From an uncultured Mycoplasmatota bacterium (GTDB lineage Bacteria; Bacillota_I; Bacilli_A; RF39; UBA660), in contig CAOJEH010000002.1 in NCBI GenBank assembly GCA_948434005.1, positions 62,001 to 126,000 of the forward strand: DNA of 64,000 bases. The letters run 5' to 3'. This document shows, in pieces, positions 12,088-20,348 of the stretch (position 1 is its first letter; every line of letters starts with the position of its first letter). Both the position numbers and the translations under genes were made by a program. A model generated the notes under the pieces. It saw only the letters and a list, made by a program, of their open reading frames with translations. It made no database searches and was not told the DNA's origin.

Positions 12088-12504
12088 ATGAAATCTTATA
12101 TATTTGAATATTTGGACGAAAACGATTTTAGAAAAAAAGAAAGATCAGTTAGAAAATACAATATGTTAGCATATAAAAAACTAACGTTTAGCTATTATCC
12201 AGAACTAAGAAAAGGTAATTTTTTAGGAGAAGAAGTTAGTAAAGATGAAAAAGCTAAAACTGTATCCTATGAATTAAAATTACCAACAGACGAATTATTT
12301 TCAAAAGTTCATGGAGAAATAAGACTACATTATACTGTATATACTGAAAAAGGTGTTATATTATTAACTAACATTACTCCTGAAGGAATATTAGATGAAG
12401 GGCATAGAGCCGAATTATCTACATATAAAGGTGTAATGGTTTCTAAAACAGATCCAGATAGAGATATGTTTAAAATTAATTTATTAAATATGTTAGGAAA
12501 ATAG
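12088..12504 (+). CDS. Conserved-looking orphan protein under a strong promoter
   Basis: A 138-residue cytosolic protein without a signal, membrane helix or recognised motif. It is beta-rich in the middle (KVHGEIRLHYTVYTEKG) and ends in a segment with ELSTYKGVMVSKTDPDRD. The exact consensus promoter, short G-rich leader and dedicated terminator show it is a strongly transcribed single gene, so it is likely abundant. It lies just upstream of two tRNA genes, which have their own promoter. I do not recognise the family. Confidence 0.7.
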   Translation: MKSYIFEYLDENDFRKKERSVRKYNMLAYKKLTFSYYPELRKGNFLGEEVSKDEKAKTVSYELKLPTDELFSKVHGEIRLHYTVYTEKGVILLTNITPEGILDEGHRAELSTYKGVMVSKTDPDRDMFKINLLNMLGK

Positions 12505-12525
12505 AGTAAAAACTCTATTTTTTTG
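12499..12525 (+). terminator. Intrinsic terminator
   Basis: AATAGAGT / ACTCTATT arms with an A-only loop, followed by a run of seven T. It overlaps the stop codon of the orphan gene. Confidence 0.85.
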
Positions 12526-12554
12526 TTGCACTATTAAAAAAAATATGCTATTAT
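12526..12554 (+). promoter_or_regulatory. tRNA promoter
   Basis: TTGCAC at 12526-12531 and TATTAT at 12549-12554 with a 17-base spacer, 12 bases before the first tRNA. Confidence 0.7.
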
Positions 12555-12565
12555 TAAATAGCAAC

Positions 12566-12642
12566 GGACCCTTAGCTCAGTTGGTTAGAGCATCCGGCTC
12601 ATAACCGGACGGTCATTGGTTCGAGTCCAATAGGGTCCACCA
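12566..12642 (+). tRNA. tRNA with CAT anticodon, probably Ile2 (lysidine-modified)
   Basis: A complete 77-base cloverleaf with encoded CCA: acceptor GGACCCT / AGGGTCC fully paired, D arm GCTC / GAGC, anticodon stem TCCGG / CCGGA, loop CTCATAA, and T arm ATTGG / CCAAT with TTCGAGT. The paired 1-72 position and the lack of three G-C pairs in the anticodon stem exclude initiator tRNA. The acceptor has C4-G69 and C5-G68, reported as determinants for TilS lysidine synthetase in E. coli, and the acceptor and D-arm sequence resembles Ile2 tRNAs. Elongator Met remains possible. Confidence 0.9.
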
Positions 12643-12653
12643 TTTTTTATTTT

Positions 12654-12738
12654 GCGAGTATGGCGGAATTGGCAGACGCGCTAGACTTAGGATCTAGTGC
12701 CGCAAGGCTTGCAGGTTCAACTCCTGTTACTCGCACCA
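12654..12738 (+). tRNA. tRNA-Leu (anticodon TAG)
   Basis: An 85-base class II tRNA with a long variable arm and encoded CCA. Acceptor GCGAGTA / TACTCGC (with the CCA following), anticodon stem CTAGA / TCTAG with loop CTTAGGA giving anticodon TAG, and T arm GCAGG / CCTGT with TTCAACT. It follows the CAT tRNA by 11 bases and is co-transcribed with it. Confidence 0.95.
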
Positions 12739-12748
12739 GATTGATAGG

Positions 12749-12776
12749 AAACTCGAACTTTCATAGTTCGAGTTTG
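12749..12776 (+). terminator. Hairpin ending the tRNA transcript
   Basis: A perfect 10-bp stem AAACTCGAAC / GTTCGAGTTT with a seven-base loop, 10 bases after the tRNA-Leu CCA end. The following T run is short, so termination may need the T-rich upper stem. Confidence 0.7.
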
Positions 12777-12888
12777 TATATACCTAAATTTATATTATAA
12801 TAATTATAAAATATTTAATTTAACTTATAATGTCAATTATAAATATAAAATCATGTATCACTAAGTATTATATGGAAGGATTTATTTT

Positions 12889-13425
12889 ATGAAAAGATAT
12901 AGAAAAACAGCATATGAAATACTTGACATTTCTCAGAAGATATATCAAATGCAGGAAGCAACTAATCCTACTGCAATTTTTGGAAAGAAGGAATTTATAA
13001 TAGGGTCAGAAGAAACTCGAGAAGAAATTTTTGTAAAACCAAGCCATAAGAAAGATAGATTTTATTATTTTGAGCATCCAAAAATTGAAGGAGTTATTAT
13101 AAAAAAAGAAAACGGTAGTTATTGCATTAAAGGAATGGTAAAATATACAAATAGTAGTAATCAAGATTTATGGTTTGCCAAAATCAGAATAGAACATAAC
13201 GAAGAAGATATCCAATTAAAAGGAAGTTGGGGCGGAAGTTGGCAAACGCCTGACTTTTATGATAAAAATTTAATTGAAGATTCTAACCCAGATTTTCCTA
13301 TTGCAATAGTTTCGATGAAAGAACATTTAGTTGATATTTATAATAATCTTTGCAAAAACAATGGTCAAAACAGTAATTCATACGATTCTAAAGACGTCAA
13401 AAAATTAAAAAAATACAACAATTAA
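12889..13425 (+). CDS. Orphan cytosolic protein at the head of the accessory block
   Basis: A 178-residue protein with no signal peptide or membrane helix. The N-terminal helix (YEILDISQKIYQMQ) is followed by a beta-rich core containing KGMVKYTNSSNQDLWFAKIRI and a Trp/Gly-rich turn (GSWGGSWQTPDFYD), and the C-terminus is Asn/Ser/Lys-rich. The core pattern could be a small beta-sandwich, but I recognise no family. It has a GAAGGA ribosome-binding site and its own strong terminator, so it is a single-gene unit directly downstream of the tRNA pair. Confidence 0.6.
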   Translation: MKRYRKTAYEILDISQKIYQMQEATNPTAIFGKKEFIIGSEETREEIFVKPSHKKDRFYYFEHPKIEGVIIKKENGSYCIKGMVKYTNSSNQDLWFAKIRIEHNEEDIQLKGSWGGSWQTPDFYDKNLIEDSNPDFPIAIVSMKEHLVDIYNNLCKNNGQNSNSYDSKDVKKLKKYNN

Positions 13426-13446
13426 TAATTGTTGTATTTTTTATAT
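13409..13446 (+). terminator. Intrinsic terminator
   Basis: A long AAAATACAACAATTA / TAATTGTTGTATTTT hairpin with a minimal loop around the stop codon, followed by T residues. Confidence 0.85.
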
Positions 13447-13613
13447 AAGGTACTAATGATAATTCTAACTAAGACCTTATAACATTATGATTAATTATAA
13501 AATTAAATCTAATTCAAATAATTTGTTTCAATATCTCTAAATAATATTGAATAAAATTTAAAAATAATATAATATAAAATAAAGTATATATTTTTAGAAG
13601 TGAGGTTTTACGT

Positions 13614-14582
13614 ATGAAAATTAATTATCCAATAAAATATGCAGTAATGCCAATTATAGATGAGATAAATTGGGATTGTTATCATGAAATAGATAGAGTA
13701 GATGACGTTTTATGCTATATAGTATCTAAATGTTATAAAATACGTGATATAACAAATTATTATAAAGATGGGAGATTATACAATGAATATGAAATTGTTT
13801 TTCCTTATCAAAAATCTGAATTTAGTAGATGGCGTAGAACTATTCCAGAATATAATTTAATGAATGGAAATTGTATTAATTCAGATAAAGTTCCACAAGT
13901 ATTTGATTCTTACGAAGAAGCGCTAATTCAAGCTACAGCTCAAAATGATGAGTTATTTAAAAAATCTTTAGGCTATTTAGCATTTACCAAAGATACAGCA
14001 GAAAAAATTAAAAAAATGAAGAAAAACTTCGATACCATATTAGCTAAATACAAAGTATTAGAGCAACAAATATTGCTTTTAACAGACAATCTTGAAATAG
14101 GTCAAAAGAAAGTAAATGATGTTATAAAAATTGCTAATAATAAACAAGCTGTATTATCATGTGATATATATGAAATATTAAGACTATTCGATAATGATAA
14201 ATTCATTGTTTATAGTATTAAACAAGAGCAATATGATATTTTAGCAAAATCAATTATAAAAAAAGAGGATAACAAAGATACTGCTGATAAGATAAACCAA
14301 ATATCAAAAGAAGCACAAGTATTATTATTCCACAAAGAAAAAGATATGCCTATAGAAATAGCAACTACAAAAGACCAAGGAATCTACTATATTAAAAACG
14401 ATATTTTATATTATGATGAAGGCACCGATAAAGTAGAAAAAGATAACATCGGAAATATAGAACCAGATACTTTAATTTTTTATACTACAGAAACTAGAGA
14501 GGATTTATTAAAAAGTTATGAGGAATATCCAGAAATCAACTTAAAAAACATCCCAGTACAGTTATCAAAAAAAAGCACATAA
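13614..14582 (+). CDS. Orphan protein with helical middle
   Basis: A 322-residue cytosolic protein in three parts. The N-terminal alpha/beta domain (about 1-110) begins KINYPIKYAVMPI and contains YEIVFPYQKSEFSRW. A lysine-rich, probably coiled-coil middle (about 115-185) follows, and the C-terminal domain has a strand-rich end (DQGIYYIKNDILYYDEG). The N-terminal domain looks like a conserved unit seen in hypothetical proteins of gut low-G+C bacteria, from memory and without a search. No catalytic motif is visible. The ribosome-binding site is GAGG, nine bases from ATG. The next gene starts 25 bases later, so it is probably co-transcribed with the ADP-ribosyltransferase-like gene. Confidence 0.55.
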   Translation: MKINYPIKYAVMPIIDEINWDCYHEIDRVDDVLCYIVSKCYKIRDITNYYKDGRLYNEYEIVFPYQKSEFSRWRRTIPEYNLMNGNCINSDKVPQVFDSYEEALIQATAQNDELFKKSLGYLAFTKDTAEKIKKMKKNFDTILAKYKVLEQQILLLTDNLEIGQKKVNDVIKIANNKQAVLSCDIYEILRLFDNDKFIVYSIKQEQYDILAKSIIKKEDNKDTADKINQISKEAQVLLFHKEKDMPIEIATTKDQGIYYIKNDILYYDEGTDKVEKDNIGNIEPDTLIFYTTETREDLLKSYEEYPEINLKNIPVQLSKKST

Positions 14583-14607
14583 ATACTATATTAAATTGGT
14601 GATATTA

Positions 14608-15318
14608 ATGAAAAAATACAAGCTATCTTTAAAAGATATAAATTCTAATTATTTTCATTTTACACTAGGAAATAATTTAGAAAGTATAGATAAAAATGGA
14701 TTAATTCCTAAAAAAGGAAAACATGCAAAATATATTGAAGAAACAAAAAAAGTATTTTTTGTAGAAGGACTTAATAATTTACTAATACTATTTGATTGTT
14801 GGATAAATGTCTATAAAAAATGTCCACTATTACCAGAAGTAAAGTTAACCTATGGATTAGCTTCTAAATTAATGCGTTCCAAATATTTTCCCATGTTCAT
14901 TGTAGATTTTTATTTTTTTATAATCAAAAACAGTAGACGTCATAAAAAGTATGCATATAAAGAATTTGATAAATTATTTGATGAATGTATCTTATTACAA
15001 TTAGATATAAAAGAAAATCTAGACTTTAGTTTTTCTGATATTGACGAAATCAAATCAAAAGGGTATAAAAAAAGACATCTTATTGAAATGGGATATTCAT
15101 TAAAATATTCTGATATGAATTCAAACAAAATGGATAAATGGAACCTTCATACTCTAAGTAATAAAATAATTAGTCCAAGCAAAATTAAACTATGCTATAT
15201 AAATAATTTTACTAATATTAGAGATATTTTTAACTATGCATTAAAAAACACAACATTAGATTTAAAAGACATGTGTCCAGTCTTATATGACTATATAAAG
15301 AGCAAAAAAGCATTATAA
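14608..15318 (+). CDS. Possible ADP-ribosyltransferase-fold protein
   Basis: A 236-residue protein starting at the ATG after GGTGATATTA; the upstream GTG at 14596 is part of the ribosome-binding region. The N-terminus reads YFHFTLGNNLESIDKNGLIPK. This is the 'H-x-T ... L..I..+GL' pattern that opens ART-superfamily proteins such as KptA/Tpt1 RNA phosphotransferases and DarT-like toxins, where the His binds NAD. A second element, VFFVEG, could be the next core strand. The rest is Lys/Tyr-rich and helical with a pattern KGYKKRHLIEMGYSLKYSD. The catalytic Glu cannot be placed, so enzyme activity is unproven. It lies between the coiled-coil orphan and the DIT1-like protein, 25 and 40 bases away, apparently in one operon. 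Confidence 0.4.
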   Translation: MKKYKLSLKDINSNYFHFTLGNNLESIDKNGLIPKKGKHAKYIEETKKVFFVEGLNNLLILFDCWINVYKKCPLLPEVKLTYGLASKLMRSKYFPMFIVDFYFFIIKNSRRHKKYAYKEFDKLFDECILLQLDIKENLDFSFSDIDEIKSKGYKKRHLIEMGYSLKYSDMNSNKMDKWNLHTLSNKIISPSKIKLCYINNFTNIRDIFNYALKNTTLDLKDMCPVLYDYIKSKKAL

Positions 15319-15358
15319 TTAAATTTCATAAAATTTACAAAAAGGAGAATACAAATTT

Positions 15359-16549
15359 ATGAATATATTAAAAGAAGAGTATTTTAGGTTCAATGTAAAT
15401 ACAAATATAAAAACTAAATCAGCACTAATAAAATGTCTAGAAAATAAAAAAGATATAGAATTATATAAAAAATGGATAGCAAAAGAGTATAATACAAATA
15501 TTGATGATGAAAAAGTTACAACCAGATTAAATTTAATTATAGAATTAAAAGATAAAATTGATACTGTTAAACAAGATAAAGATAAAACCCAAATTATAAG
15601 TTATTTGCAAAGATTATTATCAGCCAAATTTTCTGGAAACAAGCAGTCTGATACTATGATTAAATTATTATTAGAAAAATTAATTTATTCTTTTAACAAT
15701 AAAAAGCCAATTATATTTGTTTTTGGATTTGGTGGTTATAAAAACTATAATTCACAATCATTTCCGGAAGTAGATTATGCTGAATTATTTCATATGAAAT
15801 ATATAACTGAATTTCTATGGCCAATTATAACAACTTATAAATATGGAGTAGTTTTTGAATATGAAAGTGAAGAAGTTTCAATAGAATTTAATAATGTAGT
15901 GCAAGAAACAACTAATAGGTATACAAAATCATTTGAAAATTTATTAAACTATTTTGTAAAAAAAGTAGAGGAACAAAACAATATTAAATTAAATTACAAA
16001 TTAGTACTAGCCAGAGATATGTATAACGTTTTAGATTTATATAAGAAAATGAACGAATACTATCCAAAAATGAAAGAAAAATTTAACAAATTATCAAAAG
16101 AAGAAAAAGAAATATGGATAAAAAGAGCTAGAACAAATTTCTTAATTAAAGGCAAAATAGACTATTCAAATCTTTCACAAGAAGAACTAAATAATAAGTT
16201 TATAGAAGCTAGAATAAATAATGAATGTTTTTTAGCAGCAGATTATTATTTACGCATTGATTTTTGGGAAAGACCAGGTGCAATATCATTATTCGGAACT
16301 TGGGGTAAAACTCCATGTGCTTCACCAACTGATTGTGGCCTACATCTAAAATCAACAAAAGCATCTAATACAGATTTTTGGATTGGTACAGGAATATTTA
16401 AATTAAAAAAAGACAATGATTTTCAAGAGTTAATACTATCAAAAACACAATTAGATAATGTAAAAGAAAAAATAGTAATAGAAAAATCAACAAATGAGGA
16501 ATTAAAACAAATTTCAAATAACTTTAATACATTTCCATATATAAAATAA
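15359..16549 (+). CDS. Protein resembling DIT1/isocyanide-synthase family
   Basis: A 396-residue cytosolic protein. The middle (about residues 115-205) has KPIIFVFGFGGYKN, then PEVDYAELFHMKYITEFLWPI, then YKYGVVFEYESEE, then a RYTKSFENLL helix. The order and spacing resemble the core of DIT1 / pyoverdine-dityrosine / IsnA isocyanide synthases (FPxKxxN, PDxGE, PGxxIxIxSDG). A C-terminal part (about 285-345) with FWERPGAISLFGTWGKTPCASPTDCGLH is distinctive. I recognise this as a fold-level resemblance only, and the FPxKxPN-type residues are not exact. A good AAAGGAG site precedes ATG. It ends the plus-strand series before a convergent gene six bases away. Confidence 0.35.
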   Translation: MNILKEEYFRFNVNTNIKTKSALIKCLENKKDIELYKKWIAKEYNTNIDDEKVTTRLNLIIELKDKIDTVKQDKDKTQIISYLQRLLSAKFSGNKQSDTMIKLLLEKLIYSFNNKKPIIFVFGFGGYKNYNSQSFPEVDYAELFHMKYITEFLWPIITTYKYGVVFEYESEEVSIEFNNVVQETTNRYTKSFENLLNYFVKKVEEQNNIKLNYKLVLARDMYNVLDLYKKMNEYYPKMKEKFNKLSKEEKEIWIKRARTNFLIKGKIDYSNLSQEELNNKFIEARINNECFLAADYYLRIDFWERPGAISLFGTWGKTPCASPTDCGLHLKSTKASNTDFWIGTGIFKLKKDNDFQELILSKTQLDNVKEKIVIEKSTNEELKQISNNFNTFPYIK

Positions 16550-16554
16550 TATAA

Positions 16555-17526
16555 TTAATTTTCTAAAAGAATATCCTGATTATTTTTAAGAGAAAATGTA
16601 ATTAACTCATTACTATCTACATTCTCATCCCACATATTAACAGCAGTTATTCTACTATTATTATATGACTTATAATAATAAATACATTTATCAATATTAA
16701 CACAAGAAGTATATAATGTTAGGTAATCACTAACGTTTTTTAATACTATACAACCATCTACTACAAACACACTATCCAATATATGAAAGAATCTTGATAT
16801 ATCGTCATCATTATATTTTTTAGAATTCAAAAGTAAATATGCTGTTTTAATAAATCTTGATGTTGATGAATAATCGCCTGGTAAACCAATACTACCTATA
16901 CCTTTACAGAATGGTTTAATACCAAGTTCATCTGTAAAACAATTAGTAGGAATATGTGTTTCTAAATTTAAATACAATGCTAAATTATTCATATGAAAAC
17001 TAAATTCAGGGTTATTAGTAAGAATTTCTGCTTTATTATCATATATATGCATACCAGTTTTTGTAACCTCAACTGTTATAGATTTTTCTTTATCAGCAAT
17101 ATGCCAATGAAGAGGGGTTAAGGGTATATTATCATTAAAATATATATCTATTATATTAGTTTTATTTAATAGATTAACTGTATCATCAATAGTTCTACAT
17201 TGACCTAAAATCCATAGAATTAATTCAGAAGGAGTAACATTATATTTATGTATATCCATTTCTCTTTCATAATAAGCATTATCAGGAAAAGCTAATGATG
17301 CAATAGAAAGTCCAAATTCGTTAGTTGCATCTGCATATAAAGGATAATTATCTATAACTGTACCCATACCAATAATAGAGTAGTGTTTATTTAAAGAATC
17401 AACTCTTTTAAAACTAATTATATGGTTTCTAGGAGTTATAATAATCCTTTGCCCAAAACCATTTTCAATATCCATATTTCTTCCAAAATAAGAATTATCA
17501 GATCTCAATACCATACTTGTACACAT
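16555..17526 (-). CDS. Linear amide C-N hydrolase (bile salt hydrolase / penicillin V acylase family)
   Basis: A 323-residue Ntn hydrolase of the choloylglycine hydrolase family. It begins MCTSM, so removal of Met1 exposes the nucleophilic Cys2. R16 and D19 (GRNMD), the region ADATNEFGLSIASLAFP at about 65-81, NNPEF near 175 and GLPGDYSSTSRF near 216-227 match residues that build the active site and substrate loop in bile salt hydrolases. The enzyme deconjugates glycine- or taurine-conjugated bile acids or hydrolyses related amides; bile acids and penicillin V cannot be told apart here. No signal peptide, so it is intracellular. It starts after GGTGATATT. It is on the minus strand inside a run of plus-strand accessory genes, with its own promoter. 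Confidence 0.9.
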   Translation of the reverse strand: MCTSMVLRSDNSYFGRNMDIENGFGQRIIITPRNHIISFKRVDSLNKHYSIIGMGTVIDNYPLYADATNEFGLSIASLAFPDNAYYEREMDIHKYNVTPSELILWILGQCRTIDDTVNLLNKTNIIDIYFNDNIPLTPLHWHIADKEKSITVEVTKTGMHIYDNKAEILTNNPEFSFHMNNLALYLNLETHIPTNCFTDELGIKPFCKGIGSIGLPGDYSSTSRFIKTAYLLLNSKKYNDDDISRFFHILDSVFVVDGCIVLKNVSDYLTLYTSCVNIDKCIYYYKSYNNSRITAVNMWDENVDSNELITFSLKNNQDILLEN

Positions 17527-17656: not shown

Positions 17657-19513
17657 ATGAAACACATAACTGAAATATATTTAACCACCAAATACATTAA
17701 CCAAGATGAATGGCAACAACTAATAAATACAATTTCTAAGTATAATGGTTATTTTAAAAAGTGGAAGATTATTATATCGTTTAAAGATAAAAAAATAAGA
17801 TATTTTTGTAAAACTAATTGTAAATTACCGGTTTCTATAAATGGACTAAAATCATTTGTTTTAAAAGAAAGTAATCTAAATTATAAAGAAAACTATATTA
17901 TTCCAAAACCATATTTTATATCAAGTGATAATAATATAGCTGATATATATAATTACATTAATATAAAAAAAGATAGCAAACTTATATTATTAGAAATAGC
18001 TTTCAATAAACTTACAAAAAATTTAATCAAAAATAGAGTATCAATAATAACTAAAAAGAAAAGCTGCTTTAAAAGATATATAATACCTTTTGCAATACCA
18101 AAAACTATTTTATCAGTAAATTTTGAAACTAATTATAATTTATTATATAAGGGCGCTCCTAAATATCTAGATATAAGTAAAAGCCTTCATCTATTAAAAA
18201 CGGAACCTACAGATTCAATACTAGAAGTAGATACATTTCCATATTTACAAGGAAAATACTATTTAGAGCAACAAAGTATAAATTTTGATAGGCATTCTAT
18301 TATATTTGGTGCTAGTGGATGCGGTAAATCTAAATTTATAAGTTTAATGATTAATAATATCTATAAAAATAATTTATATAAAGATAGATATAAAATAGTT
18401 GTAATAGATCCACATGCCTCATTAGAAAATGATATTGGAGGTCTTGGAAGAGTTATCGACTTTAATAATAATTGTGATACAGTAAACTTATTTTCTAATA
18501 GTAGCCGTGATGTAGTGGTATCAGTTGAGTTATTATTAGATGTATTTAAAGGTTTAATACCTAATAGCTATAATTCAAAACTAGAAAGAGTATTAAGACA
18601 TAGTTTATATTTACTACTGTATAGCAAATCATTTAATTTTACAAATCTTAGAAAGCTATTATTAGAATTAGATTATCGTAATGATAAAGTTAAACAATAT
18701 GAACAATCCCTTCCAATGAGTATCATAGAGTTCTTTTTATCAGAATTTAATGATATAAAGACAAAATCATATACAGAAGCCATTTCTCCAATAATTGCCT
18801 TAATTGATGAAATGGAAATGATTCCAGTATTTAATAAAGATATAAAAAGTGATAATTTAGAAAAAACTATAAAAGATAATTTTTTAACTATTATCTCTCT
18901 TGATAGAACAAAATTAGGAGATAAAGTAACAAAGACAATATCAGGTTTAGTAATGCAACAACTGCTGACTTTAGTTCAAAATTATACTTTTAATGAACAT
19001 ATTATATTCATAGTAGATGAGGTTGCTGTAGTAGAAAATCCTATTTTAAATAGATTTTTGGCTGAAGCTAGAAAATATAGGCTATCACTTATTCTAGCAG
19101 GGCAATACTTTGGCGGTGTATCAGAAAGCTTAAGGAAAGCTATATTTGCAAATGTAATCAATTACTATATGTTTAGAGTATCAAAAGATGACGCTACTAT
19201 ACTAGTTGATAATTTTAATATGAAAGTTCCTCTAAACGATAGTAAAGAACAAAAAATAAAGATAATAACAGAACTTCAAGATAGAGAATGTTTAATTAGA
19301 GTTAATTCAAATAATATATTACTGCCTGCTATAAAATGTAAAACTCTATTTTTTAAGAGTATTCCAAGAATAAAGACTAAAAATAACGAAGATATAAAAG
19401 GAATCAAAAGAGAGTCTAAATTCACTAAGTTTAATAGTAATACTAATATAAAATTAAAAGATATATTAATATCTAATTCGACGAGTAGAAAGGTTGTAGG
19501 AAAAGATGAATGA
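17657..19513 (+). CDS. HerA/VirB4-like DNA-pumping ATPase (DUF87 type)
   Basis: A 618-residue P-loop ATPase. The first 200 residues form a beta-rich N-terminal domain of its own. Walker A is GASGCGKSK at about residues 218-226, the next strand is VVIDPHASL, and Walker B IIFIVDEVAVV lies near 450-460. A late motif NVINYYMFRVSKDDA (about 499-513) is typical of HerA, VirB4 and TraG-type ATPases. No membrane helix is visible. The relatives move or unwind DNA in conjugation, DNA repair or phage defence, but no relaxase, mating-pore or nuclease gene is beside it. It starts after CGGTGATATC, and its last 8 bases overlap the start of the hexad-repeat protein, implying coupled translation. Confidence 0.8.
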   Translation: MKHITEIYLTTKYINQDEWQQLINTISKYNGYFKKWKIIISFKDKKIRYFCKTNCKLPVSINGLKSFVLKESNLNYKENYIIPKPYFISSDNNIADIYNYINIKKDSKLILLEIAFNKLTKNLIKNRVSIITKKKSCFKRYIIPFAIPKTILSVNFETNYNLLYKGAPKYLDISKSLHLLKTEPTDSILEVDTFPYLQGKYYLEQQSINFDRHSIIFGASGCGKSKFISLMINNIYKNNLYKDRYKIVVIDPHASLENDIGGLGRVIDFNNNCDTVNLFSNSSRDVVVSVELLLDVFKGLIPNSYNSKLERVLRHSLYLLLYSKSFNFTNLRKLLLELDYRNDKVKQYEQSLPMSIIEFFLSEFNDIKTKSYTEAISPIIALIDEMEMIPVFNKDIKSDNLEKTIKDNFLTIISLDRTKLGDKVTKTISGLVMQQLLTLVQNYTFNEHIIFIVDEVAVVENPILNRFLAEARKYRLSLILAGQYFGGVSESLRKAIFANVINYYMFRVSKDDATILVDNFNMKVPLNDSKEQKIKIITELQDRECLIRVNSNNILLPAIKCKTLFFKSIPRIKTKNNEDIKGIKRESKFTKFNSNTNIKLKDILISNSTSRKVVGKDE

Positions 19514-20204
19514 TAAAAAAGCTTTAGAAATTGTAAATAAAATATTTAACAATGTATTTAATAAAGATAATAAATTTACTTTAGATGAAATATTAGAAAA
19601 GTTTGCTTTTGATGTTAAGCTTCCAAAAAAAGTATATGATAGTGTTACCAATGAAGAAACATGGGCTGATTCTATAAATAGTGGTAAATATATAACTTTA
19701 AAAAATATGGAAAAGAAAGATTCATCAACAGGATGGATGTTAGAAAAAAAAGAAGTAAATAATTTAGAAGATTTAGTTAACATTTGGAATTCTATTAATT
19801 TAACAACTACTGAAAGAGTATATGATTCTATAAATGTGGCGAAAAGTGATACTATATATAGATCAGAAAATATATATAATTCAACTGATACAAGTGATTC
19901 TAAAAATATGGTTTTTTGTGATTCTTGTGGTAACAGTGAATATATGTTAGCTTCTCAAAGAACTGGCAAATCAAATTTTTGTATTAGATGTGATGATTCT
20001 ACAGATTGTAGTAGTAGTTATAATGTAGTATGTTCCAAAAAAGTAATTAACTCATTATTTATACAAGATTCATTCGATTTATACGAATGCATATTTTGTT
20101 CTCATATTGCTAGTAAAAAATACTGTATTGCTAATATGCAGTTTGAACGTGAAGAATATTTTGAAATTAAAAAAATTATAGTTGATTGGATTATGAACTC
20201 CTAA
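19506..20204 (+). CDS. Cys/Ser hexad-repeat protein coupled to the HerA-like ATPase
   Basis: A 232-residue cytosolic protein. After a helical N-terminus (residues 1-45) and a Trp-containing linker, residues 108-168 place Ser or Cys at every sixth position, eleven times without a break (108, 114, 120, 126, 132, 138, 144, 150, 156, 162, 168). The six-residue period continues with small hydrophobics to about 198. Such a six-residue period (18 per turn) is what a beta-helix would give. Ten or more cysteines in the second half (FCDSCGN, FCIRC, YECIFCSH, YCIAN) could also bind zinc or form a disulfide-rich solenoid. The C-terminus is a helix, EREEYFEIKKIIVDW. No function is known to me. Its coupling to the ATPase suggests they act as a pair. 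Confidence 0.65.
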   Translation: MNDKKALEIVNKIFNNVFNKDNKFTLDEILEKFAFDVKLPKKVYDSVTNEETWADSINSGKYITLKNMEKKDSSTGWMLEKKEVNNLEDLVNIWNSINLTTTERVYDSINVAKSDTIYRSENIYNSTDTSDSKNMVFCDSCGNSEYMLASQRTGKSNFCIRCDDSTDCSSSYNVVCSKKVINSLFIQDSFDLYECIFCSHIASKKYCIANMQFEREEYFEIKKIIVDWIMNS

Positions 20205-20280
20205 TTAACTTTTAAATATTGCTTATAATGTACACTTATATAATAAGGATTTAACAATTTATTAAAAACAATCGATTCAA

Positions 20281-20312
20281 AATAAAATACTAAACTGCTA
20301 GTATTTTATTTG
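20281..20312 (+). terminator. Strong hairpin terminator of the ATPase-hexad pair
   Basis: A perfect 12-bp stem AATAAAATACTA / TAGTATTTTATT with a six-base loop, 76 bases after the hexad gene. It separates the accessory block from the conserved aminopeptidase gene. Confidence 0.8.
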
Positions 20313-20348
20313 ATATGTGTTATAATAATTAGAAAAAAGGAGATTATT

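What the first reader, a model, noticed from the sequence alone, without database searches (positions are those of the whole stretch)
17657..20204. Coupled HerA/VirB4-like ATPase and Ser/Cys hexad-repeat protein
The two genes overlap by 8 bases and are closed by one terminator. The ATPase has Walker A GASGCGKS and Walker B FIVDEVA with a DNA-pump-like C-terminus. The partner places Ser or Cys at every sixth residue for eleven steps (108-168), then ends in cysteine-dense segments (YECIFCSH, YCIAN). No mating-pore, relaxase or nuclease gene is adjacent, so this is neither a normal conjugation module nor a known HerA-nuclease defence pair. The regular hexad suggests a beta-helix or Cys/zinc solenoid that an ATPase could load or remodel. 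A dedicated two-gene DNA-handling or defence system is an inference.
Basis: partly seen in the sequence, partly recalled or inferred. Interest (0 to 1): 0.75.

Follow-up and report, generated by a model that had tools for sequence, protein, structure and literature searches.

The report
Motor protein with beta-solenoid partner
Two linked genes in a small-genome gut bacterium encode a ring-type ATP-driven motor and a spiral-shaped partner protein; the same pairing, sometimes with more than a dozen partner genes per motor, recurs in ultra-small bacteria and archaea, so it looks like an undescribed molecular machine whose job is not yet known.

Summary
ORF A (17657-19513) is a HerA/VirB4/TrwB-type ATPase. 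ORF B (19506-20204) overlaps it by 8 bases and has Ser/Cys at every sixth residue from 108 to 168 (0 of 20,000 shuffles match). AlphaFold2 makes that stretch a beta-solenoid. B has no Pfam or NCBIfam family.

The pair is stable and stand-alone. In 243 genomes of the same GTDB family, 21 carry A, and all 21 have B adjacent. Most Bacillota copies have a third gene upstream, an AraC/GyrI-like regulator; the window lacks it. Neighbours are otherwise unrelated genes: no mating pore, relaxase, nuclease, phage or defence island.

The same partnership, expanded, occurs in CPR bacteria and Micrarchaeota: arrays of one- or two-domain B relatives with one A-like ATPase, within 3 kb of a B relative in 29 of 38 array genomes. 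Among paralogs within one genome the C-terminal cap is conserved (69-77% identity) while the solenoid diverges (38-42%).

Best reading: a cytosolic ring ATPase working with interchangeable solenoid adaptors, the cap being shared and the solenoid giving specificity. What it acts on is unknown. Defence is possible but unsupported; conjugation is disfavoured. The limited paper search found no description.

The parts
17657..19513 (+). ORF A: HerA/VirB4/TrwB-type ATPase, 618 aa; N-terminal alpha/beta domain about 1-166, motor domain about 167-575, flexible tail 576-618; no transmembrane segment
   Evidence: DUF87 5.5e-9; DndH C-domain Z 23.3, VirB4 Z 23.1, TrwB Z 21.0, HerA up to Z 18.9; no TM
18308..18331 (+). 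Walker A, GASGCGKS (residues 218-225)
   Evidence: key residues invariant
19007..19027 (+). Walker B, FIVDEVA (residues 451-457)
   Evidence: D454 and E455 invariant
19454..19492 (+). C-terminal short motif of A, LKDILISNSTSRK (residues 600-612), after a low-complexity linker; conserved in Bacillota, possible docking motif (inference)
   Evidence: consensus 'sLkdIl.s.Stsrk'; low-confidence region in the AF2 model; CPR L102 and L101 end in similar sequences, L054-L057 and L059 lack it
19506..20204 (+). ORF B: beta-solenoid partner, 232 aa, acidic (pI 4.96), no TM segment
   Evidence: (pLDDT 84, pTM 0.85)
19506..19790 (+). B N-terminal domain (residues 1-95), mixed helix/strand
19827..20009 (+). 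Ser/Cys hexad run, residues 108-168 (11 steps), core of the solenoid
   Evidence: 0/20,000 shuffles; strands 109-112, 115-118, 121-124, 127-130, 133-136, 145-148, 157-160
20076..20201 (+). B cap, residues 191-232: EC..C ... KKYC.AN.Q....EY...K.....W; the most conserved part of the family and among paralogs
20277..20315 (+). AT-rich hairpin after B, possible terminator
   Evidence: z -2.5; not listed by the consensus scan

Best explanation
A and B are the core of a stand-alone cytosolic machine. A assembles, like its HerA/VirB4/TrwB relatives, into a ring-shaped ATP-driven translocase. B is its dedicated partner: the conserved C-terminal cap is the common module that contacts or is driven by the motor, and the solenoid face recognises the target. 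Gut Bacillota keep one B per motor, usually under a ligand-responsive AraC/GyrI-like regulator; CPR bacteria and Micrarchaeota run one motor with a repertoire of B relatives. The likely job is inducible capture and ATP-driven remodelling or threading of a macromolecule, in stress or conflict rather than in conjugation. Shown here: the genes, motor fold, predicted solenoid, strict linkage, co-divergence, cap-versus-solenoid conservation, array organisation. Inferred: ring assembly, direct A-B contact, adaptor role, target, induction.
For: Linkage: A homolog in 59 of 64 loci encoding B; 21 of 21 A-positive genomes of the family have B adjacent. Distances of A and B co-vary (Mantel r 0.94 within 50 Bacillota loci, 0/2000 permutations). 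Purifying selection on both in one close pair (dN/dS about 0.06 for B, 0.09 for A). Motor fold. Solenoid. Arrays with one A-like ATPase. Paralogs of one genome: cap 69-77% identical, solenoid 38-42%, whereas Bacillota orthologs keep the solenoid at 65%; same trend in every array tested. No TM segments. Regulator: AraC + GyrI-like/Cass2, same strand within 2 kb upstream of A in 16 of the 21 A-B genomes; TrmB directly upstream of A in CPR locus L102; AsnC-type regulators among Micrarchaeota arrays.
Against: No physical contact between A and B was tested (no complex prediction available). Co-divergence partly reflects shared species history. The cap lies where the AF2 model of B is least confident (residues 171-210, block means 52-59). 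Cap conservation could reflect folding rather than motor docking. In two-domain relatives the cap occurs twice, once internally. The regulator is absent from this window and from CPR single pairs L054-L057. No target, nuclease or toxin is known. The CPR and Micrarchaeota samples cover only part of those radiations.
Confidence: 0.4

Rival explanations
1. Cargo reading: A is a coupling ATPase of the VirD4/VirB4 kind and the B proteins are its cargo, exported to the cell surface or into neighbouring cells. Arrays in episymbiotic CPR and DPANN cells would then be effector or adhesin repertoires.
For: Array ATPases of CPR match T4SS-DNA_transf (1.1e-11) and A's motor resembles TrwB and VirB4. A survey of Patescibacteria reports 5,713 VirD4-like proteins in 2,918 genomes, with only 148 encoded near virB4 (PMC12102498). 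Conserved cap with variable body resembles signal plus passenger.
Against: No membrane segment in A or in the array ATPases checked, and no pore gene adjacent. B has no hydrophobic signal segment; in two-domain relatives the cap is internal as well and roughly 150 residues follow the second cap. In Bacillota only one, conserved, B exists.
Confidence: 0.2
2. Stress or antimicrobial response: the AraC/GyrI-like regulator senses a drug-like molecule and induces A-B, which removes or protects a poisoned macromolecular complex.
For: The regulator has GyrI-like/Cass2 ligand-binding domains and is co-located in most Bacillota loci. In the window a bile-salt-hydrolase-family gene sits where the regulator is usually found.
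Against: The window and CPR single pairs L054-L057 lack the regulator; ligand unknown; B is only mildly acidic and array relatives range from -18 to +8 net charge, so DNA mimicry is not a family trait.
Confidence: 0.2
3. Defence reading: an anti-phage pair analogous to HerA-SIR2, HerA-DUF4297 or HerA-NurA, with B as sensor.
For: HerA-type motor; patchy presence (20 of 172 good genomes of the family); diversified array paralogs; best PADLOC match is mad8 of MADS (1.8e-15).
Against: No nuclease or NADase; 140 neighbour proteins of Bacillota loci show no defence-island enrichment. No B relative in viral contigs, phages or plasmids. The PADLOC match covers the generic motor.
Confidence: 0.15
4. 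Remnant or degraded conjugative module with a chance neighbour.
For: Motor resembles T4SS ATPases.
Against: Strict adjacency in 21/21 genomes, purifying selection in the pair tested, and recurrence in CPR and Micrarchaeota next to solenoid genes rather than conjugation genes.
Confidence: 0.02

Closest known systems
HerA-partner systems (HerA-NurA, HerA-SIR2, HerA-DUF4297)
   Same: Same motor fold (Z 14-19); dedicated partner encoded next to the motor; no membrane anchor
   Different: Partner is a beta-solenoid with no nuclease or NADase domain found; the N-terminal domain of A was not matched to the HAS barrel; partner genes can form arrays of more than a dozen per motor
VirB4 / VirD4 (TrwB, TraG) ATPases of type IV secretion
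   Same: Motor domain is as close to VirB4 and TrwB as to HerA (Z 20-23); CPR array ATPases hit PF02534
   Different: No transmembrane segment, no pore, pilus or relaxase genes nearby
DndH (phosphorothioation-linked restriction), C-domain
   Same: Best structural match of the motor, tied with VirB4 (Z 23.3, rmsd 3.5, 326 residues)
   Different: No Dnd genes stood out in the neighbour survey; the rest of the protein differs
Solenoid folds: hexapeptide left-handed beta-helix, YadA-like heads, pentapeptide-repeat proteins
   Same: Short regular repeat giving a beta-solenoid
   Different: No Foldseek match with E <= 0.001, best VIA-align Z 4.6; no hexapeptide or pentapeptide Pfam match; Ser/Cys at the repeat position; own N-domain and cap
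VirD4-like ATPases of Patescibacteria not encoded near virB4 (PMC12102498)
   Same: Motor of the same superfamily, away from T4SS genes
   Different: That paper does not mention a solenoid or zinc partner (term search); here a subset sits inside solenoid gene arrays

Membership tests
HerA/FtsK-superfamily ATPase (A) | Walker A and Walker B intact and conserved | tested here: met
   G218, G221, G223, K224, D454, E455 invariant
HerA/FtsK-superfamily ATPase (A) | Motor fold of the superfamily | tested here: met
   VirB4 Z 23.1, TrwB Z 21.0, HerA up to Z 18.9; DUF87 above its cut-off
HerA-nuclease / HerA-SIR2 defence pair | Adjacent nuclease or NADase effector | tested here: not met
   B matches no family; no nuclease next to A
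HerA-nuclease / HerA-SIR2 defence pair | N-terminal HAS barrel in the ATPase | tested here: inconclusive
   residues 1-166 barely covered by the structural matches; domain not folded alone
HerA-nuclease / HerA-SIR2 defence pair | Protects against phage | not testable with these tools
   needs plaque assays
Type IV secretion / conjugation module | Pore, pilus or relaxase genes encoded with the ATPase | tested here: not met
Type IV secretion / conjugation module | Membrane-anchored ATPase or membrane partner | tested here: not met
   no hydrophobic segment in A, B or the array ATPases checked (simple hydropathy scan)
Beta-solenoid protein (B) | Regular strand-turn repeat forming a coil | tested here: met
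   (prediction and periodicity; no experimental structure)
Hexapeptide left-handed beta-helix / acyltransferase | Structural match to LpxA/GlmU-type helices | tested here: inconclusive
   Z up to about 4.5, no E <= 0.001
Pentapeptide-repeat DNA mimic (Qnr/MfpA kind) | Pentapeptide repeat sequence | tested here: not met
   period is six, no pentapeptide match
Zinc-binding solenoid | Bound metal at a conserved Cys set | not testable with these tools
   C195, C198, C207 invariant; zinc content needs measurement
Virus- or plasmid-borne gene pair | Found in viral or plasmid records | tested here: not met
   B: no match in phages, plasmids or IMG/VR. A: three IMG/VR contigs and one phage record match the generic motor at 23-37% identity

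The most novel reading that the evidence does not exclude
A previously undescribed class of motor-adaptor machine shared by ultra-small bacteria and archaea and by gut Bacillota: one cytosolic HerA/VirB4-type ring ATPase serves a replaceable set of beta-solenoid receptor proteins, one per genome in Bacillota and up to dozens in some Micrarchaeota, giving an expandable recognition system in cells with very small genomes.
Probability: 0.4. Interest if true: 0.9.

Novelty: categorically new. Interest (0 to 1): 0.72.

Why it matters
CPR bacteria and DPANN archaea are among the least understood cells, and some devote large gene arrays to this protein family (15 genes in about 32 kb of a 1.3 Mb genome in G787). 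Linking those arrays to one ATPase, and finding a minimal one-motor, one-partner version in gut Bacillota, turns a collection of unannotated repeat proteins into a defined, testable machine. It also offers a partner for some of the many VirD4-like ATPases of Patescibacteria that are not encoded near T4SS genes (PMC12102498).

Tried and rejected
Filing B under a known fold: Foldseek against PDB and BFVD gave nothing at E <= 0.001; VIA-align best Z 4.6; the phmmer match to 9euf (E 0.076) and phrog_15341 (E 0.0055, not seen in CPR/Micrarchaeota copies) look like composition. Phage origin: phrog_5156 and phrog_7035 are matches of the generic motor; no B relative in viral contigs. Plasmid origin: none. 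Defence island: 140 neighbour proteins show scattered families only, none in more than 4 members. DNA mimicry: net charge is not consistently negative. Empty-site comparison in the same genus: the downstream aminopeptidase was not found in G310 or G443 at the threshold used, so it was dropped. dN/dS for distant pairs is saturated; only L030-L031 gave a value. Direct repeats around the pair are short AT-rich two-copy matches, no sign of insertion ends. The neighbour-protein alignment A4 was made only to scan many proteins in one call. Papers: eight searches of an open-access library found no description; this is not proof of novelty.

Full report
Observation. Both ORFs are real open frames at the stated coordinates, overlapping by 8 bases. 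A (618 aa) has intact, invariant Walker motifs. B (232 aa) carries Ser or Cys at 108, 114 ... 168; the run of 11 is never reached in 20,000 shuffles. Family-wide, the hexad position is Ser/Cys in about two thirds of cells, and alternate hexads differ (Asn versus Asp at the third position), which would fit a 12-residue coil (inference). AlphaFold2 predicts B with pLDDT 84 and pTM 0.85, strands every six residues over 109-160, a helix-containing N-domain and a C-terminal helix; residues 171-210 are poorly defined.

What A is. Pfam gives DUF87/HerA above cut-off. The AF2 model aligns over residues 167-575 with DndH C-domain (Z 23.3), VirB4 (23.1), TrwB (21.0) and HerA (up to 18.9). The N-domain (1-166) was barely tested. 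A has no transmembrane segment and is basic (pI 9.4); B is acidic (pI 4.96). In Bacillota A ends in a low-complexity linker plus a conserved short motif, sLkdIl.s.Stsrk.

Linkage. B relatives occur in 64 genome loci, full length in most; an A homolog lies with B in 59 of them. In 243 genomes of the window's GTDB family, A is in 21 and B is adjacent in all 21. The four B hits without A there are a fragment, a partial copy with two stop codons, and two weak partial matches. About 12% of good genomes of the family (20 of 172) and 30 of 238 genomes of the order around a Clostridia copy (two or three of these only fragments) have it; only the own genome did in a 295-genome phylum sample. A and B distances correlate at r 0.94 within Bacillota, and one close pair shows purifying selection. 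The pair is thus an accessory but maintained unit.

Third gene. 40 loci encode an AraC-type regulator with a GyrI-like/Cass2 ligand domain, mostly directly upstream of A. Across the family its ortholog group lies on the same strand within 2 kb of A in 16 of 21 A-B genomes, and has only a few orphans. The window lacks it and carries a choloylglycine-hydrolase-family gene there instead; the window genome has only distant paralogs.

Surroundings. Flanks differ between loci. Among 140 neighbour proteins no Pfam family exceeds 4 members, and PADLOC matches are scattered. B is absent from phage, plasmid and viral-contig collections at the sensitivities used.

Beyond Bacillota. Single pairs occur in CPR genomes: L054-L057 (B 41-42% identical to the window's), L101 and L102. 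In Micrarchaeota contig L059 one A precedes a run of six or more B copies; genome G531 has nine copies. Searching the CPR phylum of G528 (287 genomes) found 3 true pairs and 20 genomes with many distant, mostly two-domain relatives of 550-600 aa; the Micrarchaeota phylum of G532 (116 genomes) gave 19 positive genomes, some with 25 or more hits. Fetched arrays show tandem B relatives with one A-like ATPase. Of 38 array genomes, 37 have an A-like ATPase, mostly just one, and in 29 (16 of 20 CPR, 13 of 18 Micrarchaeota) it lies within about 3 kb of a B relative, by my reading. CPR members start with CxxC...CPDCR zinc-ribbon-like sequences; treble-clef matches are below cut-off. TrmB- and AsnC-type regulators sit among these genes. 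In the ATPase tree Bacillota form one clade (99/99) and the Micrarchaeota L059 copy falls among CPR copies (90/85), suggesting transfer between domains; array ATPases sit on long branches.

Division of labour. Among paralogs of one Micrarchaeota genome the cap is 69-77% identical and the solenoid 38-42%, while Bacillota orthologs keep solenoid 65% and cap 73%. Entropy profiles show the cap less variable than the solenoid in eight further arrays. This is what one expects if the cap is the common interface and the solenoid the specific one; it is not proof.

Mechanism. I favour a cytosolic ring motor with interchangeable solenoid adaptors, induced by ligands, acting on an unknown macromolecule (0.4). 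Export of B as cargo, a stress response, and anti-phage defence remain open; a conjugative remnant is disfavoured. Membership: A is a HerA/FtsK-superfamily ATPase; the pair is not a HerA-nuclease system (no nuclease or NADase) and not a T4SS module (no pore, no membrane anchor). Eight searches of an open library found no description, and a survey of Patescibacteria T4SS reports many VirD4-like proteins away from virB4 (PMC12102498), some of which could be the array motors seen here (inference).

Limits. No complex prediction could be run; genomes are mostly MAGs; group samples are partial; neighbour statistics are descriptive and without a control region; the novelty label rests on absence from the libraries and papers searched, and on failing the membership tests for the two nearest kinds, not on a demonstrated function.

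Noticed in passing
window 16555-17526 (-): Choloylglycine hydrolase family gene (NF038245 above cut-off) lies divergently next to A, where most Bacillota loci have the AraC/GyrI-like regulator.
   Followed up: partly
window 12088-16549: Run of five ORFs (138-396 aa) without a convincing Pfam or NCBIfam match; 14596-15318 has relatives in locus L062.
   Followed up: no
L094:2740-17477, L095:199-15863 (G787), L096 and L097 (G670): CPR arrays of about 15 or more zinc-ribbon plus double-solenoid genes; the G787 array surrounds one ATPase and is interrupted by TrmB-like regulator genes.
   Followed up: yes
L059:7007-11452, L060:170-5258: Micrarchaeota tandem B paralogs with nearly abutting reading frames.
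   Followed up: yes
L128 (G926:C21), L034: A-like ATPase split into two ORFs, a possible frameshift or assembly error.
   Followed up: no
G378:C26:50260-51051: Close ortholog of the AraC/GyrI-like regulator (428 bits) without a detected A or B; contig end or loss not checked.
   Followed up: no
L098:6234-7247, L098:8944-9930, L104:3811-4794: AsnC/Lrp-type regulators, one of them with duplicated HTH, interleaved with Micrarchaeota solenoid genes.
   Followed up: partly
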